Origin: an uncultured Prevotellaceae bacterium
GTDB taxonomy: Bacteria > Bacteroidota > Bacteroidia > Bacteroidales > Bacteroidaceae
DNA: 64,000 bases
Assembly: GCA_900318815.1 (NCBI GenBank)
Contig: ONMA01000002.1
Span: 1-64,000 of the forward strand
Reading direction: 5' to 3'
The notes under the pieces are model-generated. The model did no database searches, had not been told where the DNA came from, and saw only the letters and a program-made list of their open reading frames with translations. Shown in pieces: positions 12,425 through 30,530 of this stretch; position 1 is the stretch's first letter, and every line of letters begins with the position of its first letter. Both the position numbers and the translations under genes were made by a program.

Positions 12425-13555
12425 TTACTCGGCGATGCAGATGCAGACGCGGTTCATGTCGTTCTCCTTGAACGGCTGCACGCGCGAACCCTTCGAGTCA
12501 TACTCGATACGGTCATCACTGATGCCATACTGCTCGCGCAGCACCTTCACCACGGCATCGGCACGCTGGGCGGCCAGCTTGTCGTTGATGCGGTTGTTGC
12601 CCGTACCCGCATCGGCATAGCCAATGACGCTCACCTTCGATTTCGGGTACTTCTTCATGTAGTCGGCCACCTCCTTGATCTTGTTCATCTCTGAGGAACG
12701 AATGACGGTCTGGTTCAGCTCGAAGGCAACGTCGCGGCGCAGCGGCTCCACCTTCGATGCCACAGGCTGCTCCACCACTTTCTGCTTCTCCACCACCACA
12801 GGCTTCTTCTCTTCCACTACGGGAGCCACCTCTATCACAGGGTCTGGATCAGCAACAGGAGCATCCACAATCTTCTCTATCTTGTTGTAGCTCTTGCCTA
12901 AGTTGATGCGCAGCCCCACCAAGCCGTTGAAGTACCAGTCGGGATTGCCTGCCTTCTTCGAGTTGTACTTATCGGTCATGATGTTAGCGTTACCCTCAAC
13001 AAGCAGGCTCACTGCATCATTCAGGCGGTAGCCAATTTCTATGCCTCCACGTCCGAAAGGACGCACTTTAGACCCATACCAAAGATACTCCAACAAATAA
13101 TCTGAGCGATTTCTCAAGCGTTTGGCAATATCAATCACCTCATCATTGCCCCAGGCGATGTTAGCACCACCACCTATAAAGGCAGTCACATTGAAGTTGC
13201 GCTGTGGATTCAAGCCCCAGAACAAATTCGTCAAGTTCAGCATGAAATCCACACCAGGTGCCACATAGTTGTACTTATAATTAGATGCAGTCAATGTGCT
13301 CCAACCGCCCTTCGACTGCCAGGCATTGGCCTGCACACGTGCCGCAAACAGCGGACTAAACTGATAGCCAAGTCCAAGTTGCACATTGGGCGACAACAAT
13401 CTACTGAACTTAGGCTCTCCCAATGTGTATTGAGTACCGACACCAATAGTTACAAAAGAATGTCTCTTAAAATAATAATTGTCAGAAGAAACATCCTGTG
13501 CTTGTGTTACTGTAGCACTAAGCAGTAAAGCTGTAATAATTAAAAAGTGTTTCAT
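12425..13555 (-). CDS. OmpA-family outer-membrane protein (left copy)
   Basis: The 376-residue protein has a signal peptide (to about residue 19), an outer-membrane beta-barrel of about 200 residues (LGLGYQFSPLFAARVQANAWQS, GGGANIAWGNDE, VSLLVEGNANIMTD), a Pro/Val/Glu-rich linker (VIEVAPVVEEKKPVVVEK) and a C-terminal OmpA-like peptidoglycan-binding domain with GYADAGTG and NDKLAAQRADAVV. It is a close paralogue of the protein at 27895-29037; the last 100 codons are nearly identical at DNA level, more alike than the barrels. It is the last gene of the left arm, 15 bp after the small lipoprotein gene. It probably anchors the surface complex to peptidoglycan. Confidence 0.92.
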   Translation of the reverse strand: MKHFLIITALLLSATVTQAQDVSSDNYYFKRHSFVTIGVGTQYTLGEPKFSRLLSPNVQLGLGYQFSPLFAARVQANAWQSKGGWSTLTASNYKYNYVAPGVDFMLNLTNLFWGLNPQRNFNVTAFIGGGANIAWGNDEVIDIAKRLRNRSDYLLEYLWYGSKVRPFGRGGIEIGYRLNDAVSLLVEGNANIMTDKYNSKKAGNPDWYFNGLVGLRINLGKSYNKIEKIVDAPVADPDPVIEVAPVVEEKKPVVVEKQKVVEQPVASKVEPLRRDVAFELNQTVIRSSEMNKIKEVADYMKKYPKSKVSVIGYADAGTGNNRINDKLAAQRADAVVKVLREQYGISDDRIEYDSKGSRVQPFKENDMNRVCICIAE

Positions 13556-13569
13556 ACGTTATTATTTTT

Positions 13570-13905
13570 TTATTCTTCCCATTCAATATGTATTGCCTGA
13601 CGCTTGGTCTTAATATTTTCAAAATGCCGATAAAGGGCATTATTGCAGAGGTAGAAATAAGCATCGTCACCATTGAAAGCTATCGTGGCATACTTCAGTC
13701 CATCCTTCTCACCTTCAGACCAAGTTGTCTCGAAAGGATCCATTCCAGCAAACTGTACAGTAGCAGAATGGTCAGCGCGCAGTTCAAACTTGTTTTCATA
13801 CTCATCAATAAACTTTCCCGTAAAAGTATCATGCCTGCTCTCACAACCTGTAAAAGCAAGGAAAAAGCAGAAAACAAATAAAATGTAATACTTACTTATC
13901 TTCAT
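13570..13905 (-). CDS. Small lipoprotein (left arm)
   Basis: The 111-residue protein has a lipoprotein signal with lipobox FTGC (Cys20). The mature part (DTFTGKFIDEYENKFELRADHSATVQF) looks like a small beta-rich domain of unknown family. It sits between the collagen-like lipoprotein and the OmpA gene, in the same relative place as the 164-residue lipoprotein of the right arm, although the two share little obvious sequence. The gene is AT-richer than its neighbours. Its start lies 29 bp after an intergenic hairpin. Confidence 0.8.
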   Translation of the reverse strand: MKISKYYILFVFCFFLAFTGCESRHDTFTGKFIDEYENKFELRADHSATVQFAGMDPFETTWSEGEKDGLKYATIAFNGDDAYFYLCNNALYRHFENIKTKRQAIHIEWEE

Positions 13906-13934
13906 TATAACAATGCACTACTAATTGAGTAAGA

Positions 13935-13969
13935 AGGAGGGCACATCCTTCTAAGAGACGTGCCCTCCT
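13935..13969. terminator. Intercistronic hairpin, left arm
   Basis: A 10-bp perfect stem (AGGAGGGCAC at 13935-13944, GTGCCCTCCT at 13960-13969) lies between the collagen-like lipoprotein stop and the small lipoprotein start, with no long T run. It may attenuate read-through or protect the 3' end of the upstream message. The right arm has a hairpin at the same position (24512-24558). Confidence 0.7.
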
Positions 13970-13992
13970 GAAATTGAACTATCGGAGTTTAC

Positions 13993-16900: not shown

Positions 16901-17376
16901 CCGTCAATTCCGTCCTTGCCGTCAATTCCGTCCTTACCGTCCTTGCCGTCAATTCCGTCCTTACCGTCCTTGCCGTCAATTCCGTCCTTACCGTCCTTGC
17001 CGTCAACGCCGTCCTTACCGTTGGCACCGTCTTTGCCATCAACGCCAATAGCCTTGTAGCCAGTCTTTACGCCATCTTTCTCCCAGTAGCCATCAGCACT
17101 GATAGTCCAAGTTGTACCCGGAGTACCATTGTCGATGGAATACGATTTTCCATTACTCAAGGTAATAGACACACCTGTGCTTGTGCGCTCAAGATTCGTA
17201 ATGACAGATCCCTTGGCAATGAGCGTATTAATCTGCTCAACGTCCTTGTTGACTTTGTCAATCTGACCCTGCAAGTCTTTGATGTCATCATCGTAGTCCT
17301 TACAAGACACAAACACACTTGTCGAAGCCATCAGAAGGGCTCCGAAAAGCAATGCACTTTTGATTTTTTTGTTCAT
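13993..17376 (-). CDS. Collagen-like surface lipoprotein
   Basis: The 1127-residue protein has a lipoprotein signal (lipobox FVSC, Cys25) followed by acidic KDYDDDIKDLQ and a short coiled coil resembling the DUF4988 type (about 30-60). A small beta domain (about 60-108) leads into about 54 Gly-X-Y triplets (residues 111-272), almost all GKD, GID or GVD with one interruption (DTAVDG). After that come beta-rich repeats to the C-terminus (VRVIYGWGNFKTDWIYVDV). Family knowledge: Gly-X-Y runs form triple helices; Lys-Asp rich ones can be stable without hydroxyproline. The lipoprotein's 5' end and leader are almost identical to those of the right-arm protein at 20394, and the C-terminal end is similar, but the stalks differ completely. 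Confidence 0.88.
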   Translation of the reverse strand: MNKKIKSALLFGALLMASTSVFVSCKDYDDDIKDLQGQIDKVNKDVEQINTLIAKGSVITNLERTSTGVSITLSNGKSYSIDNGTPGTTWTISADGYWEKDGVKTGYKAIGVDGKDGANGKDGVDGKDGKDGIDGKDGKDGIDGKDGKDGIDGKDGIDGKDGIDGKDGKDGIDGKDGIDGKDGKDGIDGKDGKDGINGKDGVDGKDGRDGRDGKDGIDGKDGKDGKDTAVDGKDGVDGKDGVDGKDGVDGKDGKDGVDGKDGVDGKDGKDGVYYVPNPETGCFDIYNADGTFKEATQIRFLTGGGSITAVMDNDNLKLYGVEGYENGLTIALNNSVRSLVFQKDAMGRVYIDGVPGIRVASFKYKDVKSTVKDNIGETWNEQSTESVINPATYAYYHVNPANADVNDLKNLVYIIEKDAEYKSTRALASENFSVKAEYVNFVNGILKVKVSVTGTAATDDNISVVALQAKKNNDEVITSDYATIYNYDMNALRFVNNEKEVTVNSKKHKAHLRRMIINSDAKYDKDYMTAETKDAYVWDGEDSDNDGSFDDIDIELQYDKEKDLKNIVAVHVFDALTPECTNSVADIDALNLTLKYEVVQNYELGGNHTPQEKFISLNGSVIKARVYDDTGIAAIGRTPIIRVSLLSGSKVVEVAYLKVKIVGQEPIKLPEVFELNMGNINFNCANWEEITTVEDINVQLYNKLQEFGISREKFYTDYAVDGTTLAENTASIAQDIKVQNRIGTVTNLADADETGTTHLIKWTVSEDRLWQKSGQDIYHDVLYKNIAGGGDLTVRLKGHVNTIPKVYNVVEAKYISEYWNSDKSIANFNVNVPTSTTDADPDNCLFENDLNSPFITYPAGDPNAGIINVDSKVTKIIYKFHSSNAGSHKFGNVTRTFSVTPDGLQLRVGTQVIARIINAPYTTKGQNTVQNVVLLNKNSDIAKELLNTEAFTMNIMAIGYVCSSTSKEVSITFKGNEYFTVKYVKPIKVAEQAADNFIDGVDFGEHGSYINIKNLIAPLDWRNRYFSTYGNYWGFYGPFNVQFDKSDAEIKLNGQWQALPATIVVDLDQTNYYGYDTATEAPYGYVTYKNNGTTLNSDTQMRIKVRVIYGWGNFKTDWIYVDVKKTI
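16566..17046. repeat. Tandem repeat coding for collagen-like triplets
   Basis: On the minus strand this is a long run of 9-bp units (GGCAAGGAC, GGAATTGAC, GGCGTTGAC and variants) that encode the Gly-Lys-Asp / Gly-Ile-Asp / Gly-Val-Asp triplets. Higher-order 18- and 27-bp units are visible, with identical blocks around 16800-17000, so copy number is likely to change by slippage in frame. Confidence 0.9.
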
Positions 17377-17482
17377 ACAATAATGAATTTAATTAAACTA
17401 AAAAAATGAAATAAAACTTCTTTCTCTAACATCTCACAGCGTGCTTATATGCACTTTTATAGCATCTCCCGGCGGGAGATAC
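17262..17482. repeat. Left arm of large inverted repeat (with 20287-20511)
   Basis: Read on the minus strand from 17482, the sequence matches 20287 onward: 109 bp of leader up to the start codon with one substitution and one single-base indel, then about 110 bp of coding sequence for the signal peptide and KDYDDD region with mostly silent changes. The outer end of the arm holds a 17-bp perfect dyad (17464-17480, ATCTCCCG-G-CGGGAGAT). Confidence 0.93.
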
Positions 17483-17495
17483 ATCAATTTTGGTG

Positions 17496-17527
17496 CAAAA
17501 ATAGACAAAATCTCTGAACCTTGCAAA
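17496..17527 (-). promoter_or_regulatory. Promoter of the collagen-like lipoprotein operon, inside the bracketed segment
   Basis: On the minus strand: TTTG (17524-17527), 20 bp, then TATTTTTG (17496-17503), an ideal Bacteroidetes promoter. Transcription would start near 17489, just before the inverted-repeat arm. It is therefore within the 2.8-kb segment between the repeats. No equivalent box is found at the mirrored place beside the right arm. Confidence 0.75.
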
Positions 17528-17591
17528 TATTCTTGAAGTTTTTTTTAAAAAATATTCCAAAATATGTTTTTATGTCAAGAAGAATTCTCTT

Positions 17592-17745
17592 TTAGACGGT
17601 TGAACGCTTCTTTTTGGACGGTTAGACGGATGAACGATTTTCTTTGGACGGATAGACGGATGGACGGTTTTGGGAGACGGTTAGACGGATGGACGGTTTT
17701 GGGAGACGGTTAGACGGATGAACGGTTTTAAGACGGTTTCTGGGT
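17592..17745. repeat. Minisatellite of about 29-31 bp units
   Basis: Roughly five tandem copies of a unit like GACGGTTAGACGGATGAACG plus a T/G-rich spacer, with the last three copies nearly identical (GGGAGACGGTTAGACGGATG). It is upstream of the promoter of the left lipoprotein operon and does not encode a convincing protein. Confidence 0.85.
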
Positions 17746-17998
17746 TTGCAGTTGTTATGATGGAGCGACCTCTTCCATGCGCACCAGGTGGTGATGGCAA
17801 AACTGCATGGCGATATCGTTTAGGTGTATCCTTTGATATTCTTCAAGTAAATAATTATATAATTGTACGCGAACATTATTATAAGGTATACTCAGCTTCG
17901 TCTTTAGCCCTCGTTTGCCTGAGATGGTCAGCATGCCAAGTCCTTCTTGATTCTGGGGGAAAAGGGGGATTTCTCGCCCTGTTTCATGGCGAATATCC
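17746..17998. other. Gene-free stretch in the bracketed segment
   Basis: I see no convincing gene in this stretch. A 123-residue open frame (17718-18089) crosses tandem repeats and has no family features or good ribosome-binding site. AT-rich, possibly degraded sequence. Confidence 0.5.
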
Positions 17999-18175
17999 CG
18001 TCACACCCAGGCGGTATATTCCGTTACACCTCATCGGATGTTTCGTTACACCTTGGTGCATTATTAATCACACTGTAATGAATGCTTAATCACGCTCTGA
18101 TTAATGCTCCGTCGAGGTGTGATGAAGCATCCGTCAGACTGTGATCTATGCTGCGCCTTGGTGAAAGGGAATATT
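17999..18175. repeat. Array of eight degenerate 22-bp units
   Basis: Eight consecutive 22-bp units can be written with one extra base after the first: they start with CGTYACACY or AATCACRCT in most units and end in GATG/AATGCTT-like sequence. Unit starts: 17999, 18022, 18044, 18066, 18088, 18110, 18132, 18154. Twenty-two bp is about two helical turns, as expected for phased binding sites. The array ends about 34 bp before the -33 box of the ATPase promoter. Confidence 0.6.
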
Positions 18176-18208
18176 AGTCGCAGATATTCTTATTTTTTGC
18201 GCGTATTA

Positions 18209-18240
18209 TTTGGTTTTGTCAAAATAATCCTATATATTTG
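18209..18240 (+). promoter_or_regulatory. Promoter of the ATPase gene
   Basis: TTTG (18209-18212), 20 bp, then TATATTTG (18233-18240): a consensus Bacteroidetes promoter. Expected start of transcription is near 18247, which supports the ATG at 18263 over the longer frame from 18104. Confidence 0.72.
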
Positions 18241-18262
18241 CAACAAAAATAGTATTACTGTT

Positions 18263-19492
18263 ATGATATACGATATTGAGTTTGAAAACATGTATTCTTT
18301 CAAGGAGAAGGTGGTCTTTTCTATGGAAGGTACTGCAACCAATGTGAAGAGTCAGAATTGTTTCCGCCTCAGTGACTCTGACAAGTGCCTGAAGGTTGGT
18401 GTCATATACGGTGCTAATGCGTCAGGAAAGACGAACTTGATTCGTGGTTTATTTTGGTTTCAAAGTTTGTTGGTGACCAATAGCCTTTCCGGGGAGAATG
18501 ATGGGGTAAGCGGGTATTTGCCTTTTGGACTAACAGAATCAACAATCAGTGCCCCTTCAACGATTAAAATCAGGTTAGTGCATAAGGATGGACATATATA
18601 CACGTATCTTCTTAAGGTTAATTCATACGAAGTTATAGAGGAATCACTCTCTAAATTGGTCGAAGGTGAAGACATCTTCTTATTTAAAAGAATTTACATA
18701 TCCAATGCCAAGCATCAATTAGAACTATGTGACGGTATAAGTGATTTTGTCCTTCCGCAGAATGAGATTCGCAGAAATCAACTTGGCATAAGCTTTCTTC
18801 AGACAGTCAATGTTCCTGTTGTGACGGATATTGCTTATGAATTGCTCAATATTCAACTGGCAAATTGTTACAATGAAAATATGGCAAGCCAATTATGGTA
18901 CAATGCGAAGAACCTTTTAGCAAAAAACAAAGATTACAGAAACAAACTGATATTGTTTCTTAAACATTTGGACACAGGGTTTAAGGACTTCAGGATTCCT
19001 AATGAGAAATCTGAGTTTAAAGACCTGATGTTCTTGCATGAAATGAAAATGAATGATGGCAGTATTCAGCCCGTAGAGTTCTATTCATTGATAGAATCAT
19101 TAGGCACTCAGAATCTATTTCTTTTGGGTGTAAAGATTATAGAGGCTTTAGACAAGGGCTATACGCTGTTCGTAGACGAACTTGACGCTTCTTTGCATAC
19201 CTATATCACGGAGTTTATTATCAAGATGTTCCAGAATGAACGCATTAACACCAAACATGCACAGCTAATCTTGACCACTCATGATATTAATCTCATGGAC
19301 GAAAAGAGTCTGAGGCTTGATCAGATCTGGCTGATGCAGAAGAAAGAGGATGGCTCTTCTGAATTGTACTCTTTGGCAGACTTTGATGGCATTGATGAAG
19401 ATACTACTATAAAAGAATGGTATATGGCCAAGCGTTTTGGCGGGCTTCCTAAAATTGAGTCGATTGAAAATTTGTTCGACCTGTACAGATAA
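18263..19492 (+). CDS. AAA-family (SMC/OLD-like) ATPase
   Basis: From the ATG at 18263 the protein has 409 residues; the frame opens at 18104 but the promoter at 18209-18240 excludes that start. It begins with MIYDIEFENMYSFKEKVVF, typical of AAA_15/AAA_21 ATPases. Walker A is YGANASGKTNLI (about residues 50-61). The C-terminal part has an ABC-like signature region, Walker B LFVDELDASLH and the H-loop LTTHD. This family pairs with effector proteins in several defence modules (for example AbiLii/RloB-type pairs). Its stop overlaps the start of the next gene by one base. The gene is clearly AT-richer than the surrounding genome, a sign of transfer. It lies within the inverted-repeat-bracketed segment. 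Confidence 0.85.
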   Translation: MIYDIEFENMYSFKEKVVFSMEGTATNVKSQNCFRLSDSDKCLKVGVIYGANASGKTNLIRGLFWFQSLLVTNSLSGENDGVSGYLPFGLTESTISAPSTIKIRLVHKDGHIYTYLLKVNSYEVIEESLSKLVEGEDIFLFKRIYISNAKHQLELCDGISDFVLPQNEIRRNQLGISFLQTVNVPVVTDIAYELLNIQLANCYNENMASQLWYNAKNLLAKNKDYRNKLILFLKHLDTGFKDFRIPNEKSEFKDLMFLHEMKMNDGSIQPVEFYSLIESLGTQNLFLLGVKIIEALDKGYTLFVDELDASLHTYITEFIIKMFQNERINTKHAQLILTTHDINLMDEKSLRLDQIWLMQKKEDGSSELYSLADFDGIDEDTTIKEWYMAKRFGGLPKIESIENLFDLYR

Positions 19493-20004
19493 TGCCGTTG
19501 CTGGGAAAGCCTGCGATGGGGACAGATGCATTAATGGCTATGCCAGAAGGCATGGTTATTGGCAGAACATACGAAAGAAACCCCTATCTGGATACTTATA
19601 GACTAACATTAAGATTGTTGGGATTACATTCACTGGAACACGGAGAGCTTGTATCTCACAAGGTAGGAAATGGACAGTCCTGGAATCTGCAAAGGAAAGG
19701 AAATACGCTGATTTTTAAGAACGACTCCGAATTAACAATGTCTGTTCCTGAAAAGGCCATCTCTATTATGAAAGTTTTGCCAGACGGCAAGCCCTTGATT
19801 GATGTCGAGTGGCAAATAAATGACTACCCAGAAGAAATCAAGGTCTCTGCCGGCGAACAATTTATTATGACGATAGATGACTTGTTGGCTTCTGATAATC
19901 AATATCTGAAGATTCATTGGTTTGGCGACATCTATTTTTGTGCGAGGGAAGATGGTATAAATGATGATTTTGATATGACTTTGTTTGACCTCTCTACATG
20001 CTAA
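19492..20004 (+). CDS. Unknown protein paired with the ATPase
   Basis: The 170-residue protein starts in a TAATG overlap with the ATPase stop, so the two are translationally coupled. No signal peptide or membrane segment is seen. It has mixed alpha/beta composition, with the N-terminus MPLLGKPAMGTDALMAMPEG and a C-terminal acidic stretch (REDGINDDFDMTLFDL). I do not recognise the family: the EGxTE-type start of RloB proteins and Toprim or HNH motifs are not visible. By position it is the likely effector or specificity partner of the ATPase. Same low GC as the ATPase gene. Confidence 0.75.
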   Translation: MPLLGKPAMGTDALMAMPEGMVIGRTYERNPYLDTYRLTLRLLGLHSLEHGELVSHKVGNGQSWNLQRKGNTLIFKNDSELTMSVPEKAISIMKVLPDGKPLIDVEWQINDYPEEIKVSAGEQFIMTIDDLLASDNQYLKIHWFGDIYFCAREDGINDDFDMTLFDLSTC

Positions 20005-20286
20005 GAGGCATTCTTCCTGTTTTCTAAATAATTGTGACCTGTAAGGTCGAATAAGTACGACTGTTACGGTTCGGCAGATGTCCTATCACACCAATCATTG
20101 AGGTATGATAGGACATCGGTTGAACTGTAAGGTGCTGTGCCGTAGGGTAAAATTTTTACAATGCATCTTTTCGTGTTTGTATTTTGGAGGATTGTAAAGA
20201 TATTTACTAATTATATCTGAATAAGGAAGTCCTGCCCTGCAGGGCTGGAATATTGGAAAAAGTAAGAAAGATTTACAGAAATCATT
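20005..20286. other. Non-coding stretch between ATPase cassette and right lipoprotein
   Basis: No gene seen. It contains a 12-bp perfect dyad (GATGTCCTATCA at 20078-20089 with its inverse at 20106-20117) and a palindrome GCCCTGCAGGGC near 20234-20245. A weak TATTTTG-like element near 20180 is the only possible promoter; no proper TTTG/TAnnTTTG pair lies just outside the right inverted-repeat arm. Confidence 0.6.
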
Positions 20287-20511
20287 GTATCTCCCGCCGG
20301 GAGATGCTATAAAAGTGCATATAAGGCACGCTGTGAGATGTTAGAGAAAGAAGTTTTATTTCATTTTTTTAGTTTAATTAAATTCATTAATGTATGAACA
20401 AAAAGTTAAGTAGTGCATTGCTTTTCGGAGCTCTTCTGATGGCTTCGACAAGCGTGTTCGTGTCCTGTAAGGACTATGACGATGATGTCAAGGACCTGCA
20501 GACTCAGATCA
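20287..20511. repeat. Right arm of large inverted repeat (with 17262-17482)
   Basis: Mirror copy of the left arm. It starts with the same 17-bp dyad (20289-20305), continues through the leader to the ATG at 20394 with one substitution and one single-base indel relative to the left, then about 110 bp of the lipoprotein signal sequence. The distance between the inner ends of the arms is about 2.8 kb. Confidence 0.93.
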
Positions 20512-23500
20512 ACAACCTGACCTCGGCTGTTGGCCAGAAAGAGACCACAATCAACACCTCGATTGTGAACCTCCGCACAGCCATCACCGCCCTTGAGGCC
20601 ATGGAAGAGGCTTACAAGAAGGCTGACGCAGCCGTTCTTGCTGAGGCCAAAGATGCCGTTGCCAAGGCAGAGGCAGCTCTGAAGGCTGCTTACGAGAGTG
20701 GCGACGCTGCTACACTCAATGCTGCAAAGGCTGCCCTGGCTGAGGCTGAGGCTGCCCTGAAGACTGCTTACCAGAATGCTGACGCTGAGGTACTTGCTGC
20801 TGCTCAGAAGGCTGTCAACGATGCCAAGTCCGCCCTTGAGGGTGAGATGTCGGCTGCCGACGCTGCCACACTGGCTTCTGCCTTAGAGGCTGTGAGCGAC
20901 GCCAAGACGAGCCTGCAGTCGGAGATGGCTGCTGCCGATGCCAACACATTGGCTGCTGCTAAGGAGGCTGTGAACCAGGCCAAGGCTGCTCTTGAGGCTG
21001 CCATCAATGCCAACTATGAGACCCTCGTGGCCAAGGACGCCGAGCTGAGCGCTGCTATCCTGAGCGCACAGACCGCTGTTGACCAGGCTATGACTCTCTT
21101 AGGCTCCAAGGCCGACAAGACCGAGCTCGCCAGCGTGAACAACGAGCTGCAGAACACCATTCAGAGCCTGAACACTCTGAACAGCACCGTTAGCGGAGCC
21201 GTGACCGACATCAAGTCGCTGCAGACCGCCCTCGCTGCACAGGAGGCTGCCCTGAATGCTCAGAAAGCTGAGCTTCAGAACCAGATTGATGCCCAGAGTG
21301 CTGCCTTAGGCCAGACCAACGAGAAGATGGCTGCTGCCCTTGAGCAGATCAACACCCTGCAGACCACTCTGGCTGAGAAGGAAGCTGCCCTTCGTCAGGC
21401 TATCGCCGACGAGGCTGCCCGCATCAGCGCTGAACTGAACAATATGGGCGTTTCCATCGAGGAGCTCCGTGCTGCCCACGAGACCTTCACCCTGAAGGAG
21501 GAGACCGCTATCATCAGGACTGACGTGGCTAAGATTCAGCAGGACACTGAGGCTCTGGCTATGTCGATCGACGAGATTGATGCCAAGCTCGACATGCTGA
21601 GCAAGCTGCTGGCCCAGAACCTGCGTTCGCTGGTCTACATGCCCAAGCTCTACATGGACGGTATCGAGACCATCGAGTATCCCTGGCTGACTGACACTAT
21701 CCTGATGAAGCAGACCCTTGCTCAGTATGTACGTGCTGCCGACGGCAAGACCATCAAGAGCGTGGAAGACTGGGTGAACACTGTTCCCATCAGAACCTTC
21801 ACGGTTTCGCCCGTATGGCCCATCGACTACCACATGAATCCCTCTATCTCTGCTACCAAGGCTGAGGACGTAAAGGGCTTCTATGGCTACAAGGTGGAGA
21901 CGATTACCCGTGCCACCAGCAACCAGGCTGGTTCACTCGGCATCACTTCGCCCGCTAAGTACCTTGACAACACCAATCTCTTCGCTAACAGCAATGGCAT
22001 CCTGACCACTGGTCTGAAGATTAACAATGCTGCTAACATCAAGAACGAGAAGGATGGTACGGAGAACGTGATTGTTGCCCTGCAGGTTGAGTCGCGCACC
22101 AGCGCCGACAAGGACACCCTCATCACCTCTGACTACGCTATGATTTATCCCGAGAAGACTTGGGTGGAAGGTCTGGTTTGGACGAAGACTGGTCTGAACA
22201 TCGGTTCTCCGATTAACAGTGACGAGGCTTGCACCATCAATGCTGCCCAGGTGGTTCACGTGTTTGACAATCCTGTGGAAGCTCTGGAGGACATCAAGGG
22301 CAATGCCGACGTACAGCTGATGTACAACAACCGCGCTGGCATCAACCTGAGCGAATACCTCGGTCTGCACTATGTGATTGAGGGTATCACGAAGAGTGCT
22401 AAGGCAAAGCGTCCCGGCACTTGGAAGTTCGGCGAGCAGACAAAGTGGGGTCTGTACTACTACTTTGACCTCGTTGACTATGAGGTTGACGGCAACGTTA
22501 CCCGCGACAGCCGCTACCTGAAGATTAATGCTACCACCGGTAACATCGTTGCTCAGAACGTTGACGACAACGGCAATATCCTTGACGTGGAGTCGGCTAC
22601 CTCTGTTGGCCGTGAGCCTCTGGTGCGTGTCCGCGTTTACTATGCTGACGCTCCTCAGACCTTCGCCAATGCAGCTGCTGCTGAGACCTATCTGGCCAAC
22701 CACACCGTTGTTGACGGCTACATCCTGGTTCACATCACGCAGACCGCTCCTACTCCCGATCCCGCACAGCAGCTCATCATCCGCGACTTCTTCAACAAGG
22801 ATGAGAACAATGTGTTCCACTTCAACCTCTGCGACGGCGACATGATTTGGGATAGCGACTGGGCCGAGTTCTCGTACTTCGTGCTGACCACGAACCTGAA
22901 GAACATGACCAAGGCACAGTTCGACCTCCAGTATGAGCCTGACTTCAGCGACGCTACCAACAACAAGCTGGCCATCTTCAAGAAGAGCGGCACTGGCTTC
23001 ACCACCACTGGTGCATACGGCGACGCTATCTACTCGCCCAACAGCGACACCCAGACCAACCACTGCTTCGAACTGAACCTCAGCAACACCGAGATGGAGC
23101 AGCTGACTCAGCACCAGACTCCTTGGAACAATGTAGTTCGCGACTCACTGTTCATCCGCTACAAGGCTATTGCCGGCACCGGTGCCCAGTATGAGTACAT
23201 CTACATCAAGATGCCTGTGACCATCGACCGCAAGCAGGGTCCGGAGTCTACTCTGAAGAACAAGAACGCCGAGTACTGGTACAAGATTGACGGTACTGAC
23301 AACGGTTGGGATGCTATCATCTTCAACGTGAACCAGCCTGTCGACGGCCGCAACACCACCGTGTTCAACCGCAGCATCAAGTCGACCTTCCTCGGCCCGA
23401 ACAACGTGACCTTCGGTGGCAACGCTCTGAACGCCTACAAGTTCTTCTTCGCTCCTATCGAGACCACCGTTGCTGGCTACACCATCACTCCGCAGAAGAG

Positions 23501-24482
23501 CGCAAGCGATGCTAACTACAACAGGTTCATCTGCAAGTACCACGTTGACGGAACTACCGTTCACAAGTGGGGTACTGCCGCTCAGAACAAGGAGATTATG
23601 CAGAAGTGCGCTATCGCTTACAACGAGGGTGTGTTCACCAACAAGGAACTGTATGCTAAGAAGGGTACCAGCTACACTAAGATTGCTGACATGAACCAGG
23701 TGACTGGCGAGATTAACCTCATCCAGAACGATGTGGCTAAGGAAGTACTCAATGCTATTGGCTATGTGGAGAACAACGCTAACGTCAACACTGAGCTCCG
23801 CACCTACGTGGCTGTCGTCGGTACAAGTGCAGCCTTCTGCAACGACCTCGCAGCTTACGTCTACGAGCAGAGCGATGACAAGAGTGAGGCATTCCTCGTA
23901 TCTTGGGCACGTCCTATCAACATGGTGACCGAGGTTCCCGCTCCTATTGCCGACGCTACCACCAACGGCCAGACCATCTACGTGCTCGAACTGCTCAAGT
24001 TCTATGACTTCCGCGGTCCTGTGGCCGGCGACATGGAAGGTGCCAACAAGTGGATGTGGGCTTACTACAACATCAAGGGTCTCAAGATCGACACCCGTCT
24101 GGATCAGGTCTACACCAACATGGGTCAGGCTAACACCAACACCTTCGTCAAGCTGAGCACTGTGACCAACGACCTGAAGTTCGGTATCCTCACAGCTACC
24201 AACTCTTACAGCAACAGCGTGTTCTCTTGCAACTTCGCCACCATCCTGCCTGGCTACCGCAACAACTACAATGCTGCCTCTAAGAGTGCTGATCTGCTGG
24301 CCGACATGGGTCTTTCTCCTGTTGACCGCGTCAAGCAGGCTCCGTTCGGTGTCCTCTACTATGAGAACATGGGTGACAAGGTGACTCAGTTCGACGTGAA
24401 GGTTCCCGTCACCGTTGAATACGAATGGGGTAGCTTCACCACCAACCTGACTATCCACATTGATCGCACGCTGGGTAACTAA
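20394..24482 (+). CDS. Coiled-coil surface lipoprotein
   Basis: The 1362-residue protein shares the lipoprotein signal and KDYDDDVKDLQ start of the collagen-like protein (Cys25). Residues about 60-215 hold five copies of a roughly 24-residue Ala-rich helical repeat (forms such as ADAATLASALEAVSDAKTSL), followed by more heptad-rich sequence to about 400, predicting a long coiled-coil stalk. The remaining thousand residues are beta-rich, ending VPVTVEYEWGSFTTNLTIHID, which resembles the end of the left protein. Codon use is strongly biased as in abundant proteins. It heads the right-arm operon: small lipoprotein, T9SS-type secreted protein, OmpA protein. Probably a surface fibre; function unknown. 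Confidence 0.87.
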   Translation: MNKKLSSALLFGALLMASTSVFVSCKDYDDDVKDLQTQINNLTSAVGQKETTINTSIVNLRTAITALEAMEEAYKKADAAVLAEAKDAVAKAEAALKAAYESGDAATLNAAKAALAEAEAALKTAYQNADAEVLAAAQKAVNDAKSALEGEMSAADAATLASALEAVSDAKTSLQSEMAAADANTLAAAKEAVNQAKAALEAAINANYETLVAKDAELSAAILSAQTAVDQAMTLLGSKADKTELASVNNELQNTIQSLNTLNSTVSGAVTDIKSLQTALAAQEAALNAQKAELQNQIDAQSAALGQTNEKMAAALEQINTLQTTLAEKEAALRQAIADEAARISAELNNMGVSIEELRAAHETFTLKEETAIIRTDVAKIQQDTEALAMSIDEIDAKLDMLSKLLAQNLRSLVYMPKLYMDGIETIEYPWLTDTILMKQTLAQYVRAADGKTIKSVEDWVNTVPIRTFTVSPVWPIDYHMNPSISATKAEDVKGFYGYKVETITRATSNQAGSLGITSPAKYLDNTNLFANSNGILTTGLKINNAANIKNEKDGTENVIVALQVESRTSADKDTLITSDYAMIYPEKTWVEGLVWTKTGLNIGSPINSDEACTINAAQVVHVFDNPVEALEDIKGNADVQLMYNNRAGINLSEYLGLHYVIEGITKSAKAKRPGTWKFGEQTKWGLYYYFDLVDYEVDGNVTRDSRYLKINATTGNIVAQNVDDNGNILDVESATSVGREPLVRVRVYYADAPQTFANAAAAETYLANHTVVDGYILVHITQTAPTPDPAQQLIIRDFFNKDENNVFHFNLCDGDMIWDSDWAEFSYFVLTTNLKNMTKAQFDLQYEPDFSDATNNKLAIFKKSGTGFTTTGAYGDAIYSPNSDTQTNHCFELNLSNTEMEQLTQHQTPWNNVVRDSLFIRYKAIAGTGAQYEYIYIKMPVTIDRKQGPESTLKNKNAEYWYKIDGTDNGWDAIIFNVNQPVDGRNTTVFNRSIKSTFLGPNNVTFGGNALNAYKFFFAPIETTVAGYTITPQKSASDANYNRFICKYHVDGTTVHKWGTAAQNKEIMQKCAIAYNEGVFTNKELYAKKGTSYTKIADMNQVTGEINLIQNDVAKEVLNAIGYVENNANVNTELRTYVAVVGTSAAFCNDLAAYVYEQSDDKSEAFLVSWARPINMVTEVPAPIADATTNGQTIYVLELLKFYDFRGPVAGDMEGANKWMWAYYNIKGLKIDTRLDQVYTNMGQANTNTFVKLSTVTNDLKFGILTATNSYSNSVFSCNFATILPGYRNNYNAASKSADLLADMGLSPVDRVKQAPFGVLYYENMGDKVTQFDVKVPVTVEYEWGSFTTNLTIHIDRTLGN

Positions 24483-24511
24483 TCCATCGTAGCAACCAAT
24501 CAAGTAAACTC

Positions 24512-24558
24512 TTAATAAGGGAGTGCGCCTAAAGAGAGTGGCGCGCTCCCTTTATTAA
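24512..24558. terminator. Intercistronic hairpin, right arm
   Basis: Arms 24512-24529 and 24540-24558 pair (AAGGGAGTGCGCC / GGCGCGCTCCCTT) with T-rich 3' flank. It lies between the large lipoprotein and the small lipoprotein gene, at the same place as the 13935-13969 hairpin on the left, and probably reduces expression of the downstream genes relative to the first. Confidence 0.75.
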
Positions 24559-24568
24559 TTCTTACAAA

Positions 24569-25063
24569 ATGAAGAAACTTACCTATTTTCTGTTCGCTAC
24601 GCTTGCAATGCTTGCCATCGCCTCCTGCCAGAACAGCAAGGCACCCAAGGATGCCAGCACATCGCAGGGGTTCCAGGGCACCCTGGCAGAGACCGACACC
24701 ACCGACATGCTGAAGCTATCCGAAGACTGCATGACCCTGTTGCAAGCATCGAAAATCGACGAGGCACTCGATATGCTGTATGAATATGATGACAGCACCC
24801 ACAGCGTGACACCGCTGAGCGAAGAAACACGCAGTGCCTACAAAAAGAAGTTCACGATGTTTCCCGTCGTGAAGTACACACGCGCCTATTACTCCTTCAA
24901 TGCAGAAGGATGCAACGACGTGAAATACAACGTCTCCTTTGGCGAAGATTTCGACGGCCAGTCGCCCAAGACGGCCTTCATGTTCAATCCGGTAAAGATC
25001 GACGGACAATGGTATCTCTCTGTGAAGAGGAGCGACCAGAGCCTCGACGAAATGAACCGATAG
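24569..25063 (+). CDS. Small lipoprotein (right arm)
   Basis: The 164-residue protein has a lipoprotein signal MKKLTYFLFATLAMLAIASC (Cys20). The mature part has helical segments (LKLSEDCMTLLQASKIDEALDMLYEYDD) and a beta-rich C-terminal half (YTRAYYSFNAEGCNDVKYNVSF). No family recognised. It begins 86 bp after the large lipoprotein and 33 bp before the next gene, within the right-arm operon. Confidence 0.82.
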   Translation: MKKLTYFLFATLAMLAIASCQNSKAPKDASTSQGFQGTLAETDTTDMLKLSEDCMTLLQASKIDEALDMLYEYDDSTHSVTPLSEETRSAYKKKFTMFPVVKYTRAYYSFNAEGCNDVKYNVSFGEDFDGQSPKTAFMFNPVKIDGQWYLSVKRSDQSLDEMNR

Positions 25064-25096
25064 CTGCGTCCTTATACAAACCAACCACACATAGCA

Positions 25097-27874
25097 ATGA
25101 GAAAAGCTTTTTCTTTCCTTCTCCTGCTTTTGTCGCTCGCTGCCGGGGCACAGCACAGGCAGTACGTCTTCGACTTTACAGAGCCAGGCAAACTCGACGG
25201 CCCGGTCATCCAGCAATCGCCCAGCGATGTGAAGGTGTTGGTGGTCGACAGCGTTTTCCGCAGTGACGACGGCCACCTGCAGCTTAGCTTCCAGCTTGGC
25301 GACACGCCAGGCGGATCATTCATGTACTTTTATCAAGAACAGCCCTCTTTCCTCGCCATTGAGCCGCCTGTCCGTTTTTTGGTGGATGCCATCGGCGCAG
25401 CGATTACAGAAATCAGAATCTCGGAAGACAGTCGTTGTGGCGACCTAAACATCCTGTCGCCTAATGTTCCGGAGGGTTACTACGACTATTTCGGCCACTA
25501 CTGGTCGGGTGAACAAAGCCAGGTAAGAAACGTCACCTTTGTCAATATGGGTTCTCCCACCCTGCTCTACCAGTTAATCATTGACTATGACATTGACCGC
25601 GACGTGCTGGCCCCCACCGCTGCCATGCTGAACGACGTTACCTACGCTGAAGGAGCTGAAGTCTATGATTTCGCTTCGCTGAAGCTACAGTTCGGCCAGC
25701 AAGTGAAGTTAGGCAACGAAGCCGCCTTCACCCTGCATTGTCCCGACAACACTACACTGCCATTAGATGGCGTGCTCAATAATAACATGCTGGCCATTTC
25801 GCTGCCCGCCAACGTGCAGCAGCCCACAGAGCTGGGCGAATACACCATCGAAGTGGCAGTCCAGTCGGTTGTCACCGACGACGAAGTGGAGCAGTACAAC
25901 AAGACGCTGACCTATAAGTTTAACAAGATTCAGAATTGCGCCACCTTCGAATATGCCACGGTGACGCCCTCCACGGAAGGCATCATCGATGTCCTGCCCA
26001 GTCAATTCTCCCTAACCTTCCCGTCCTACGCCCGTATCGTGGCCAATGCATTGCCACTTACCATCATACGAATGAGTGACGGAAGCCCGGAGCGTCAGGT
26101 GACGGCACGTCTTGATGATACCGACTATAAGAAGGTCATCTTCGATTTCCAGTCTGACATGCCCGCAGACATCGACCAAAAGGATGTCTACATCCTGGAG
26201 GTACCCGAGGGTTACTTCTGGAACAACGCCTATAAACCAGAAGCTGCCGACCAAGGGCGCGCCGATGGTGCCCGCTACAACCCGGCCTTCACGCTGGCTT
26301 GGAACGTGGGCGGCGTGAAGTTCGTCTCCGACGAGATGCTGGCCAAGGCCACGGAATGGATAGGCCATACGGGCGTGGGCTATCCCACGGCAACGAGTAC
26401 GGCACGCTCGGCCTTAGCTGCACTGATAGCCAACCATAACGACAAGGACGATGCCGACATGCAGGCTGCCATCGATGCCTTCCTTGCCGAGACCGACGTC
26501 ATGCTGCCAGAGAACAAAGTCTACTATGAGATTGCTGCGAAGAACAGCGAGGGCACCCTGCTCTACCTGAGCTTCGACGATGAGAACGGCATAGGACTTA
26601 CCACCGACGAGACCGGCGCAGCCCGCTTCCGTGCCGAGACGAAGGATGGCGGCATGGCCTTCAAAATCAACGGCAACAAGTACTTGCACCAGTTAGTCAA
26701 GAACGATGACTATACAGGCACGTCGGCTTACGGCGTAACCAACGAATACACACCTCTGCTGAACGACCTGACACTGGCACGCGCCGACGTGGCCGATGCA
26801 GTGGAGGGCACCTTCGGCCTGCTGAGCATCTATGGCTGCATGGGCCATAACGACGACGAAGCAGAGGTTTATGAGTATGCCTACATAGACTTCAGCAACC
26901 AACGAATCAGCACCTCGGAATCGCACAACAAGAACCAGTACTTCGACGCCAAACGTTCGACCGCCTTCCAGTTTGTTGAAGTGGAGGCTCCCGAAATCAG
27001 CGTAGCCTACGAGCTGTCGCCTGCCGATGGCAGCGAGACCCTGTCGCTCAACCAGATTACGGTGACATTCCCCACGCTCGATGCCGTTACCTTGGTCGAT
27101 AAGAACGTCATCAGTCTGACGGGCGCAACGAGCTACACTCCCGTTACGGTGACAGCCGTTTCAGGAAAGACCAATGCCTACAACCTGAACTTCAGCGGGG
27201 TCATGCCCACAGGCAACTACACGCTGACCATCGGCAAGGGTGCCTTCAGCTATCAGCTGGACGATGAGGTGAGGACGGTGCAGGCCATCACGGCCCATTA
27301 CACACTGAACGAGCTGCAGTTCGTCTACGACTTCATGAGCATGGTGTATTTCTATGAAGGCTACAACGCCTGGGATCCCATCGCGCCCGAGGACGTGAAC
27401 CACTGGACCTACTGGAATGAAGGCTCCTTCGGCGCAAAGGATACGGATGTGGTCATCATTGAGCGCAACCGCCGCAACCGCGTGCATGTGCATGGCAAGT
27501 TCGTGGTGAACAATAAATTCGTCAATGAATTTGGTGCCAAGCTGAAAGCCGTGCAGTTCAAGCCCGACCATACCATTACCGATGCCGAACTGCCCACGGG
27601 CAACTACCAGATGGTGATTCCCGCCGAGAGCTTTGGCGACGGTAACTATGCCAAGTATCTGGCCAATCCCAGTTCGATAGCCAAGAACCAGTGTCACGTG
27701 AACGCTGAGTACGTGAAGGATTTCTGCGTCGTGGACCTGGTAACGGGTATCAACATCACGCTGGACGATGACGCACAGCCGAAGGAGGTCTTCGACCTGC
27801 AGGGCCGTCGCGTGGAGGGCAAGGCGAAGTCGGGTGTGTACATCGTAAACGGACGTAAAGTAATCATCAAATAA
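25097..27874 (+). CDS. Secreted multidomain protein with T9SS-type C-terminal sorting signal
   Basis: The 925-residue protein has a signal peptide (MRKAFSFLLLLLSLAAGAQ). It contains several Ig-like or bacterial adhesin-type beta domains (for example residues about 300-390 and 640-740, LSPADGSETLSLNQITVTFPT) and a helical FIVAR-like stretch near 430-475. The C-terminus VFDLQGRRVEGKAKSGVYIV followed by NGRKVIIK matches the short type A type IX secretion sorting domain common in Prevotella. It has no counterpart in the left arm. Probably exported by T9SS and placed on the surface with the partner lipoproteins. No enzymatic motif seen. Confidence 0.82.
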   Translation: MRKAFSFLLLLLSLAAGAQHRQYVFDFTEPGKLDGPVIQQSPSDVKVLVVDSVFRSDDGHLQLSFQLGDTPGGSFMYFYQEQPSFLAIEPPVRFLVDAIGAAITEIRISEDSRCGDLNILSPNVPEGYYDYFGHYWSGEQSQVRNVTFVNMGSPTLLYQLIIDYDIDRDVLAPTAAMLNDVTYAEGAEVYDFASLKLQFGQQVKLGNEAAFTLHCPDNTTLPLDGVLNNNMLAISLPANVQQPTELGEYTIEVAVQSVVTDDEVEQYNKTLTYKFNKIQNCATFEYATVTPSTEGIIDVLPSQFSLTFPSYARIVANALPLTIIRMSDGSPERQVTARLDDTDYKKVIFDFQSDMPADIDQKDVYILEVPEGYFWNNAYKPEAADQGRADGARYNPAFTLAWNVGGVKFVSDEMLAKATEWIGHTGVGYPTATSTARSALAALIANHNDKDDADMQAAIDAFLAETDVMLPENKVYYEIAAKNSEGTLLYLSFDDENGIGLTTDETGAARFRAETKDGGMAFKINGNKYLHQLVKNDDYTGTSAYGVTNEYTPLLNDLTLARADVADAVEGTFGLLSIYGCMGHNDDEAEVYEYAYIDFSNQRISTSESHNKNQYFDAKRSTAFQFVEVEAPEISVAYELSPADGSETLSLNQITVTFPTLDAVTLVDKNVISLTGATSYTPVTVTAVSGKTNAYNLNFSGVMPTGNYTLTIGKGAFSYQLDDEVRTVQAITAHYTLNELQFVYDFMSMVYFYEGYNAWDPIAPEDVNHWTYWNEGSFGAKDTDVVIIERNRRNRVHVHGKFVVNNKFVNEFGAKLKAVQFKPDHTITDAELPTGNYQMVIPAESFGDGNYAKYLANPSSIAKNQCHVNAEYVKDFCVVDLVTGINITLDDDAQPKEVFDLQGRRVEGKAKSGVYIVNGRKVIIK

Positions 27875-27894
27875 CAAACAAAACTGTAGTATTT

Positions 27895-29037
27895 ATGAAA
27901 TTCAAGAATGTTTTTCTCGCAGCACTGCTCTTCATGGGCGCAGCTGCTGTACAAGCCCAGGAAGAGGGCGCGGAGTATGAGTTTCAGAAGCATGCCTTTC
28001 TGAATGTCGAGGCAGGCGCACAGCACACGCTGGGCGAGGCCAAGTTCAAGGACCTGATGTCGCCCAACGTGCAGCTCGGCCTGGGCTACCAGTTCAGCCC
28101 CGTACTCGCTGCCCGCCTGCAGGCCAATGCCTGGCAGTCGAAGGGCGGCTGGAGCAACTTCCGCAAGAACGCCGGCGACCCTCCCTACACGGGCAAGTAC
28201 AAGTTCAACTACGTGGCACCGGGCGTTGACGTGATGGTGAACCTGTCGAACCTGATTTGCGGCTGGAACCCGAAGCGCGTGTTCAACGTGACGGCCTTTG
28301 TGGGTGGCGGTGCCAACATCGCCTGGGGCAACGACGAAGTGAACGACATTGCCAAGACGCTGAAGTCGCTCGACAACTATGACCTACAAAATCTCTGGGA
28401 CGGCTCGAAGGTGAACCTCTTCGGACGTGGCGGCGTGGAGTTAGGCTTCCGCCTGAGCGATGCCGTGAGCCTGCTGGTCGAGGGTAACGCCAACATCCTC
28501 AGCGACAAGTACAACTCGAAGAAGGCCGATAATGCCGACTGGTACTTCAACGGTCTGGTGGGCGTGCGCGTGAACTTAGGCAAGAGCTACCGCAAGATTG
28601 AGAAGGTGGTGGAAGCTCCTGTTGCCGAGCCTGAGCCTGTGATTGAGGTGGCTCCCGTGGTGGAAGAGAAGAAGCCCGTGGTGGTGGAGAAGCAGCCCGT
28701 AACACCGAAGGTGGGCAAGATTCAGCGCGACGTGACCTTCGAACTGAACAAGGCCGTGGTGCGTTCCTCCGAGATGAACAAGATCAAGGAGGTGGCCGAC
28801 TACATGAAGAAGTACCCGAAGTCGAAGGTGAGCGTGATTGGCTATGCCGATGCCGGCACGGGCAACGACCGCATCAACGACAAGCTGGCCGCCCAGCGTG
28901 CCGACGCCGTGGTGAAGGTGCTGCGCGAGCAGTATGGCATCAGTGACGACCGTATCGAGTACGACTCGAAGGGTTCGCGCGTGCAGCCGTATCAGGTGAA
29001 CGACATGAACCGCGTCTGCATCTGCATCGCCGAGTAA
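27895..29037 (+). CDS. OmpA-family outer-membrane protein (right copy)
   Basis: The 380-residue protein has a signal peptide (to about 22, AAAVQAQ), a beta-barrel domain, a Pro/Val/Glu linker (VIEVAPVVEEKKPVVVEKQ) and a C-terminal OmpA peptidoglycan-binding domain (DVTFELNKAVVRSSEMNKI, GYADAGTG, NDKLAAQRADA). It is a close paralogue of the protein at 12425-13555, with C-terminal domains almost identical. It ends the right-arm operon, 20 bp after the secreted protein gene. Confidence 0.93.
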   Translation: MKFKNVFLAALLFMGAAAVQAQEEGAEYEFQKHAFLNVEAGAQHTLGEAKFKDLMSPNVQLGLGYQFSPVLAARLQANAWQSKGGWSNFRKNAGDPPYTGKYKFNYVAPGVDVMVNLSNLICGWNPKRVFNVTAFVGGGANIAWGNDEVNDIAKTLKSLDNYDLQNLWDGSKVNLFGRGGVELGFRLSDAVSLLVEGNANILSDKYNSKKADNADWYFNGLVGVRVNLGKSYRKIEKVVEAPVAEPEPVIEVAPVVEEKKPVVVEKQPVTPKVGKIQRDVTFELNKAVVRSSEMNKIKEVADYMKKYPKSKVSVIGYADAGTGNDRINDKLAAQRADAVVKVLREQYGISDDRIEYDSKGSRVQPYQVNDMNRVCICIAE

Positions 29038-29090
29038 CAGTCCTTCTCGCTAACTAAGGCACATTAAACACAACGGATTTCCTATTAACT

Positions 29091-29176
29091 ACAACGGATT
29101 TCACGGATTAAACGGATTTTCTAAGCTGCTGACTATCAGTTAAGCTTAAATCCGTTTAATCCGTGAAATCCGTTGT
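29091..29176. repeat. Palindromic element with 29-bp arms, copy 1
   Basis: Perfect 29-bp inverted arms (29091-29119 and 29148-29176), made of CGGATTTCACGG/ATTAAACGG-type words, flank a 28-bp centre (AAGCTGCTGACTATCAGTT). A second copy lies at 42315-42399 with the same arms and the centre in the opposite orientation. A half copy (ACAACGGATTTCC) precedes it near 29071. Confidence 0.9.
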
Positions 29177-29199
29177 TTTAAAAAAAAAGATGATTTTTC

Positions 29200-30438: not shown

Positions 30439-30450
30439 AAAAACCTAAAG

Positions 30451-30497: not shown

Positions 30498-30530
30498 AAC
30501 ACATAAATCATTTCATCATATCATGTAACC

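What the first reader, a model, noticed from the sequence alone, without database searches (positions are those of the whole stretch)
12425..29037. Mirror-image surface-protein locus with two alternative stalk types
Two paralogous operons run outward from a common centre. Left: collagen-like lipoprotein, small lipoprotein, OmpA protein. Right: coiled-coil lipoprotein, small lipoprotein, T9SS-type secreted protein, OmpA protein. The lipoprotein signal regions, the C-terminal strands and the OmpA proteins are shared, while the stalks are a collagen-like triple helix on one side and an Ala-rich coiled coil on the other. This looks like a locus that can present one of two fibres on a common anchor. 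I know no described system with this arrangement.
Basis: partly seen in the sequence, partly recalled or inferred. Interest (0 to 1): 0.93.

Follow-up and report, generated by a model that had tools for sequence, protein, structure and literature searches.

The report
Flip switch between two surface coats
Two back-to-back operons, each for a large surface-type lipoprotein and an OmpA-family protein, flank a DNA segment with matching inverted ends and a promoter motif beside only one of them, and in two related species the equivalent segment lies in opposite directions; the segment therefore likely flips to make the cell wear one of two different protein coats.

Summary
Two paralogous operons run outward from a common centre. 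Leaders are nearly identical (105/107 bases), the OmpA proteins are 70% identical, and the stalks differ (collagen-like versus Ala-rich). The lipoprotein bodies are also homologous by profile. The leaders form an inverted repeat beginning at a palindrome found exactly twice in the held 4.1 Mb genome. A Bacteroidota-type promoter motif faces only the collagen arm, just inside the repeat. A tyrosine recombinase gene lies beside the locus. Of 15 testable pairs (window and relatives), 12 have the motif on exactly one arm, 3 on neither, none on both. In two related species, with left flank and right arm collinear, the promoter-plus-recombinase segment is inverted, with its breakpoint at this palindrome. 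The best reading is a promoter-inversion switch between two S-layer-like lipoprotein operons: a two-armed variant of the Bacteroides BT1926-27 phase-variable S-layer, working like the Campylobacter fetus sap switch. Inversion within a strain, the invertase, exclusive expression and the kind of coat are inferred. Against it: the opposite state of the window's own locus was not found, and an AbiL-like gene inside the segment could read through into the right arm.

The parts
11136..12182 (-). tyrosine recombinase (candidate invertase), next gene after the left OmpA gene on the same strand
   Evidence: Phage_integrase and Phage_int_SAM_5. Relatives of at least 80 bits in 8 of 8 other paired loci of the genus set against 4 of 45 other loci of at least 12 kb; in 4 of 8 further pairs.
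12425..13555 (-). left-arm OmpA-family protein
   Evidence: OmpA domain; 70% identical to the right one; sister in tree
13570..13905 (-). left-arm small lipoprotein
   Evidence: lipobox-like FTGC seen in the sequence; homologs beside left-type lipoproteins in L105 and L243
13993..17376 (-). left-arm lipoprotein: SCKDYDDD anchor, collagen-like stalk (39 G-X-Y triplets in residues 111-227), beta-rich body
17377..17483 (-). left leader (shared inverted repeat, left copy)
   Evidence: 105/107 identical to the right leader
17462..17482 (-). palindrome GTATCTCCCGCCGGGAGATGC, left copy: predicted inversion site
   Evidence: exactly two exact copies in the held 4.1 Mb genome, inverted; the equivalent site is the inversion breakpoint in relatives
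17496..17526 (-). promoter motif TTG-N20-TATTTTTG facing the left arm
   Evidence: the only full motif in the centre that abuts an arm leader (the other, 18210-18240 +, precedes the ATPase gene)
17484..20285 (.). predicted invertible segment between the two leaders
   Evidence: bounded by the inverted repeat
18104..19492 (+). AbiLi-like ATPase gene; start likely at 18263, because its own promoter motif lies at 18210-18240
   Evidence: PADLOC AbiLi E 3.9e-79; AAA_21; motif
19492..20004 (+). 170-aa ORF, directly after the ATPase; unknown
   Evidence: no family hit
20286..20393 (+). right leader (shared inverted repeat, right copy), without an upstream promoter motif within 400 bases of the start codon
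20287..20307 (+). palindrome, right copy: predicted inversion site
20394..24482 (+). right-arm lipoprotein: SCKDYDDD anchor, Ala-rich (27%), Pro-free stalk region (residues 56-402), beta-rich body
24569..25063 (+). right-arm small lipoprotein
   Evidence: PG1828-type signal region, partial and below cut-off
25097..27874 (+). 925-aa secreted-type protein of the right arm; T9SS tail not confirmed by model
   Evidence: homologs in the same place in L099, L101, L102
27895..29037 (+). right-arm OmpA-family protein

Best explanation
This is a pair of back-to-back operons for two paralogous surface-type lipoproteins with different stalks, separated by a DNA segment bounded by inverted repeats that has a promoter motif beside only one of them, and it likely works as a two-way switch: a tyrosine recombinase is predicted to flip the segment at the leader palindrome so that only one coat operon would be transcribed at a time. 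Shown directly: the two operons, the near-identical inverted leaders with a palindrome found only twice in the held genome, the one-sided promoter motif, the adjacent recombinase gene, recurrence of the pattern in relatives, and an inverted promoter-plus-recombinase segment between two related species whose left flank and right arm are collinear. Inferred: that the window's segment flips within a strain, that this recombinase does it, that the arm without the motif is silent, that the lipoproteins are on the surface, and that they form S-layer-like coats held by the co-encoded OmpA barrels. In the assembled state the promoter motif faces the collagen-stalk arm.
For: Inverted repeat 17261-17483 / 20286-20509; leader 105/107 identical against 104/126 in the adjoining coding DNA and chance upstream. 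Palindrome present exactly twice in the held genome, inverted. Full promoter motif upstream of the left leader only. The same rule in relatives: of 15 pairs that could be tested, 12 have the motif on exactly one arm (window, L092, L094, L127, L241, L242, L093, L243, L168, L183, L138; G181), 3 on neither (L145, L154, L149), 0 on both; L244 and L195 could not be tested because their contigs end there. Related species G076 and G333: left flank 92% and right arm 87% on the same strand, promoter plus recombinase 84% on the opposite strand, breakpoint within CTCCCCGGCGGAGATTGCA. One-armed relatives L184 and L189 differ by inversion of about 700 bp between perfect 25-bp palindromic repeats. Recombinase relatives in 8 of 8 other paired loci of the genus set versus 4 of 45 other loci of at least 12 kb, and in 4 of 8 further pairs. 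The Bacteroides oleiciplenus pair L138 has a palindromic repeat one copy of which fits exactly, and the other with one mismatch, the consensus CCGTTACCTABVRAGTAAC reported for BT1927 and seven other loci close to integrase, surface-protein and OmpA genes (PMC12118408, passages).
Against: No genome with the window's own locus in the opposite state was found (397 genomes searched with the start of the right arm; an exact leader scan of viral contigs found nothing). In the window the recombinase lies outside the segment, unlike 8 of the 9 other divergent pairs. At 80 bits or more no recombinase relative was found in the held DNA of L154 (weak hits only), L149, L195 or G181. The AbiLi gene has its own promoter motif pointing toward the right arm, and the scan shows no terminator on that strand between 20004 and 20286, so the right arm may not be silent. 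The leader hairpin is also present in unpaired loci with a promoter motif and varies in sequence there, so it may act in the mRNA as well. In L242 the arm without the full motif still has -7-like boxes, as does the left arm of L094. The left arms of G076 and G333 are not collinear: that of G076 is short. Some unfaced arms look decayed: the left lipoprotein of G076 has an in-frame stop, and the right one of G166 lacks the SCKDYDDD stretch. Three Phocaeicola pairs show no motif on either arm.
Confidence: 0.77

Rival explanations
1. Fixed paralogs: an old duplication left two operons; the shared leader is an mRNA 5' stem-loop kept by selection or gene conversion, the left arm is expressed and the right arm is off, or driven by read-through from the AbiLi promoter, with no flipping.
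For: The leader hairpin recurs in unpaired loci with a promoter motif and the left leader folds somewhat better than shuffles (z -2.1, 3 of 200 shuffles as good). AbiLi promoter motif and no terminator found before the right arm. The recombinase lies outside the segment. No opposite state of this locus was found.
Against: In two related species the promoter segment is inverted with its breakpoint at this palindrome, and again in one-armed loci. In L094 the palindrome and the bases before the start codon are identical in the two leaders while the stretch between them has diverged. The promoter motif is never on both arms (0 of 15). Recombinase association 8/8 versus 4/45.
Confidence: 0.15
2. 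The segment does invert, but by RecA-type homologous recombination between the roughly 220-bp repeats (or the OmpA genes) rather than by the tyrosine recombinase; switching would be rare and unregulated.
For: The repeat includes coding DNA and the OmpA genes are inverted copies too; OmpA pairs are sisters in the window and in L127, as gene conversion would give. No recombinase relative of 80 bits was found in 4 of 16 non-window pairs.
Against: The breakpoint maps to a short palindrome rather than the whole repeat; 25-bp repeats suffice in L184/L189; recombinase enrichment at paired loci.
Confidence: 0.2
3. The arms are co-expressed and build one composite structure, with the two lipoproteins as partners.
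For: Both operons are intact in the window and each has its own OmpA; read-through into the right arm is possible.
Against: The two lipoproteins are full-length paralogs rather than complementary parts; single-armed loci are common; the promoter motif sits on one arm only.
Confidence: 0.08

Closest known systems
Bacteroides thetaiotaomicron BT1926-27 phase-variable S-layer lipoprotein locus and its seven related loci
   Same: Surface lipoprotein plus a partner predicted as an 8-stranded barrel, invertible promoter, palindromic inverted repeats near a site-specific integrase (PMC12578637, PMC12118408, PMC12548429: passages only). The B. oleiciplenus pair L138 carries a repeat fitting the reported consensus, one copy exactly and one with a mismatch.
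   Different: As described there it is one operon switched ON or OFF; here the segment lies between two different operons, so both states would give a coat. The palindrome sequence differs, and the stalks are of two kinds. The BT1927 protein sequence was not at hand, so homology to it was not tested.
Campylobacter fetus sap S-layer switch (Dworkin and Blaser 1996)
   Same: A single promoter on an invertible segment generating S-layer diversity. Only the title was seen, in a reference list; the rest is recalled.
   Different: Unrelated proteins; recalled as RecA-dependent with a repertoire of genes; here a tyrosine recombinase gene and two lipoprotein-plus-OmpA operons.
Lactobacillus acidophilus slp segment inversion (Boot 1996)
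   Same: Interchange of active and silent S-layer genes by inversion of the chromosomal segment; resembles the convergent pairs such as L093 and L243. Only the title was seen.
   Different: Gram-positive S-layer proteins; gene inversion rather than promoter inversion as in the window.
AbiL abortive-infection system
   Same: The ATPase in the centre matches AbiLi.
   Different: The 170-aa partner matches no model; its place inside a surface-coat switch is unexplained.

Membership tests
BT1926-27-type phase-variable S-layer lipoprotein loci | large surface-type lipoprotein co-encoded with an OmpA-family protein | tested here: met
   both arms; surface exposure itself not tested
BT1926-27-type phase-variable S-layer lipoprotein loci | promoter motif between palindromic inverted repeats | tested here: met
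BT1926-27-type phase-variable S-layer lipoprotein loci | tyrosine or site-specific recombinase gene next to the locus | tested here: met
   11136-12182
BT1926-27-type phase-variable S-layer lipoprotein loci | inverted repeat matching CCGTTACCTABVRAGTAAC | tested here: not met
   the window palindrome is GTATCTCCCGCCGGGAGATGC; the published form occurs at the B. oleiciplenus relative L138
BT1926-27-type phase-variable S-layer lipoprotein loci | sequence homology of the lipoprotein to BT1927 | not tested
   BT1927 sequence not at hand; Bacteroides-named homologs of the left body at about 41-42% identity
BT1926-27-type phase-variable S-layer lipoprotein loci | crystalline surface layer on cells with the promoter ON | not testable with these tools
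   needs electron microscopy
two-way promoter-inversion switch (sap-like logic) | one promoter serving two divergent genes | tested here: met
   one full motif abutting one arm; by motif only, no expression data
two-way promoter-inversion switch (sap-like logic) | both orientations observed | tested here: inconclusive
   seen between related species G076 and G333; not seen for the window locus
AbiL | AbiLi plus AbiLii pair | tested here: inconclusive
   AbiLi E 3.9e-79; the 170-aa ORF matches nothing
type IX secretion substrate (25097-27874) | Por secretion C-terminal tail | tested here: not met
   no model hit; the motif-like C terminus was seen by eye only

The most novel reading that the evidence does not exclude
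Prevotella, Bacteroides and Phocaeicola carry a coat-swapping switch in two topologies, one promoter flipped between two divergent S-layer-like operons or two convergent operons flipped past one fixed promoter, so that a cell is never bare but always wears one of two coats with different stalks, which would change phage and immune recognition without an OFF state; in this window the switch segment also carries an anti-phage AbiL-like gene.
Probability: 0.55. Interest if true: 0.75.

Novelty: new variant of a known kind. Interest (0 to 1): 0.66.

Why it matters
Phase-variable S-layers are reported to change phage and complement sensitivity in Bacteroides thetaiotaomicron, but BT1927 is an ON/OFF switch seen in about 1 in 1,000 wild-type cells in vitro (PMC12548429, passages). 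A two-way version would be a coat exchange rather than a coat gain, here with a stalk change from collagen-like to Ala-rich. The layout recurs in rumen and gut Bacteroidales, can be read from genome sequence by the one-sided promoter rule, and can be tested in an isolate with one orientation PCR. The two topologies, divergent and convergent, offer a natural experiment on how such switches evolve from single-armed ones.

Tried and rejected
Tried without result: a close relative of the window's own locus in the opposite state (397 genomes; exact leader scan of viral contigs); solved structures by sequence for the left body (none at E 1); Foldseek against PDB, whose 50 listed matches per model are generic Ig, cadherin and other multi-domain proteins with TM scores of 0.25 or less, so no fold-based function is claimed; Pfam for the bodies.

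Rejected or downgraded: the T9SS substrate label; 'only the C-terminal strands are shared'; G438 as a switch pair, because its two genes lie about 20 kb apart with a weak leader match (69% over 137 bases) and a distant partner, so it was dropped from the pair counts; the sigma-70 scan, with 27 sites against a shuffled mean of 20.5, sd 5.1. The leader repeat of the L154 pair is only 22 bp, so that pair is weaker than the others. The mRNA-hairpin reading of the palindrome is kept as a rival.

Literature: of ten searches, six looked for such a locus in Bacteroidales, two for the Campylobacter precedent, one for BT1927 (23) and one for a known title (62). Their listings, some capped, showed no title or abstract start about a two-armed S-layer or lipoprotein switch of Bacteroidales. 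Passages were read in PMC12548429, PMC12578637, PMC12118408, PMC11868660 and PMC4902306; no paper was read whole. The papers on BT1927 by Taketani (2015) and Porter (2020) are recalled and were not read.
Full report
What is there. Two operons run outward from 17.4 kb and 20.4 kb. Each begins with a large lipoprotein whose signal and anchor region reads SCKDYDDD, and each ends with an OmpA-family protein. The left stalk is collagen-like (39 G-X-Y triplets, residues 111-227); the right stalk region (56-402) is 27% Ala with no Pro. The two OmpA proteins are 70% identical and sister rows in a tree of 39 rows. The two bodies, which BLASTP joins only weakly, align by profile over 748 columns with E 1.5e-56, while reversed and shuffled control profiles give nothing. 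Both are predicted as beta-rich multi-domain proteins (mean pLDDT 85 and 83), with only generic Ig- and cadherin-type matches in the PDB. The arms are therefore deep paralogs of one lipoprotein family with different stalks.

The start regions form an inverted repeat, 17261-17483 and 20286-20509. Its non-coding leader is more alike (105/107) than the coding DNA next to it (104/126), and identity falls to chance upstream. The repeat begins at the palindrome GTATCTCCCGCCGGGAGATGC, which occurs exactly twice in the held genome (4.1 Mb, about 94% complete), once per arm and inverted. Just inside the left copy lies a Bacteroidota promoter motif (TTG-N20-TATTTTTG; the motif itself is recalled knowledge) facing the left arm; none abuts the right copy. 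A tyrosine recombinase gene follows the left OmpA gene. The segment between the leaders carries an AbiLi-like ATPase gene (PADLOC E 3.9e-79), with its own promoter motif, and a 170-aa ORF.

Relatives. An alignment of the first 70 residues matched at E 0.001 or better in 241 of 398 genomes of the genus and at 443 places in GTDB genomes, of which 79 loci were kept. The genus is taken to be Prevotella: G078 and G079 carry contigs of the same length as those matched in Prevotella sp. P5-92 and P2-180. Divergent pairs with inverted leaders: the window, L092, L094, L127, L241, L242, L168, L183, L138 and L145. Convergent pairs: L093, L243, L244, L154, L149, L195. G181 has two such genes at the two ends of one 30.6-kb contig. 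In 8 of the 10 divergent pairs the recombinase gene lies inside the segment; the window and L145 are the exceptions. Relatives of the window's recombinase (80 bits or more) were found in 8 of 8 other paired loci of the genus set but in 4 of 45 other loci of at least 12 kb (two of the 45 are the ends of the G181 pair). Of the 8 further pairs, L168, L183, L138 and L145 have one, L154 has weak hits only, and L149, L195 and G181 have none in the DNA held.

The one-sided promoter rule. Of 15 pairs that could be tested (330 bases upstream), 12 have the full motif on exactly one arm, 3 (L145, L154, L149, all Phocaeicola) on neither and none on both (14 pairs; G181). L244 and L195 could not be tested because their contigs end within the leaders. 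Among 115 of 132 distinct lipoprotein genes that have 330 bases upstream, 60 have the motif against a mean of 2.7 (maximum 9) in 50 shuffles. In L242 and L094 the arm without the full motif has -7-like boxes alone.

Inversion seen by comparison. G076 (L094) and G333 (L242) are related loci: the left flank (92%) and the right arm from the palindrome onward (87%) are collinear, while the promoter and recombinase (84% over 1.48 kb of alignment) lie on the opposite strand. The overlap of the two alignments is the palindrome. The left arms differ, that of G076 being short and with an in-frame stop. The promoter motif faces the arm without collagen repeats in G076 and the collagen-type arm in G333. 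Independently, the one-armed loci L184 and L189 differ by inversion of about 700 bp between perfect 25-bp palindromic repeats, and L182 and L190 behave alike at lower identity. The palindrome is thus the inversion site in relatives; for the window this is inferred. A further hint is that contigs tend to end at these leaders: by my count in the table, 13 of 79 loci have the match starting within 134 bases of a contig end, and the contigs of L244 and L195 are bounded at both ends by the leader repeat. Repeats alone would also cause this.

How it most likely works. In the assembled state the promoter would drive the collagen-stalk operon. The recombinase would invert 17484-20285 at the palindromes, moving the promoter in front of the other operon. 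Since transcription would pass through a nearly equal leader and anchor region in either state, mainly the coat changes. Inferred and untested: inversion in this strain, the identity of the invertase, silence of the unfaced arm, surface exposure and S-layer assembly. The main doubt on exclusivity is the AbiLi promoter motif (18210-18240, +), which points at the right arm with no terminator found on that strand before its leader. The opposite state of this locus was not found.

What it is like. The Bacteroides thetaiotaomicron BT1926-27 locus has a phase-variable S-layer lipoprotein, a partner predicted as an 8-stranded barrel and an invertible promoter (passages of PMC12578637 and PMC12548429). 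Its repeat consensus, reported also for seven other loci close to integrase, surface-protein and OmpA genes, is CCGTTACCTABVRAGTAAC (passages of PMC12118408). The Bacteroides oleiciplenus pair L138 carries this repeat at the same place, one copy exact and one with a mismatch, which ties the paired loci to that kind of system. The window's own palindrome is different in sequence. The two-way logic resembles the Campylobacter fetus sap switch, and the convergent pairs resemble the Lactobacillus acidophilus slp inversion; I saw only the titles of those two papers in a reference list. I class the locus as a new variant of a known kind: a two-armed BT1926-27-like switch.

Noticed in passing
window 18104-20004: An AbiLi-like anti-phage ATPase gene with its own promoter motif and a 170-aa ORF sit inside the predicted invertible segment, where most divergent relatives carry the recombinase.
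   Followed up: partly
L127 11626-14736: The promoterless right lipoprotein of G166 shares 92 identical bases with its partner but lacks the SCKDYDDD stretch, as if the silent arm were decaying or had lost its anchor.
   Followed up: no
L094 9135-9526: The promoterless collagen-type arm of G076 has an in-frame stop early in the lipoprotein.
   Followed up: no
L093 versus L250: L250 (G385) looks like a single-armed version of the two-armed convergent locus L093 (G080), with flanks at 87-95% identity: a possible view of how a second arm is gained.
   Followed up: partly
L145, L136: In these Phocaeicola loci a gene of 165-166 aa lies directly upstream of each such lipoprotein; no Prevotella-type promoter motif was found within 330 bases of the L145 pair's start codons.
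   Followed up: no
L101, L102, L112, L115, L125 and others: Three or more genes of about 450-510 aa often lie upstream of single-armed loci; not identified.
   Followed up: no
window 30446-30623, 47783-48571, 58441-58556: A family of repeated intergenic elements (about 82-100% alike, both orientations) recurs in the window; not identified.
   Followed up: no
window 29084-29183 and 42308-42406: A pair of about 86 bp, 94% identical, each also partly its own reverse complement; one copy lies right after the right OmpA gene.
   Followed up: no
window 17610-17740: Short tandem repeats of the type GACGGTTAGACGGATGGACGG between the promoter motif and the AbiLi gene.
   Followed up: no
G000:C33:805-1668 and G000:C47:5246-5641: Two further recombinases related to the window's (43% and 48%, the second partial); near the first only short imperfect inverted repeats were found, near the second none.
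   Followed up: partly
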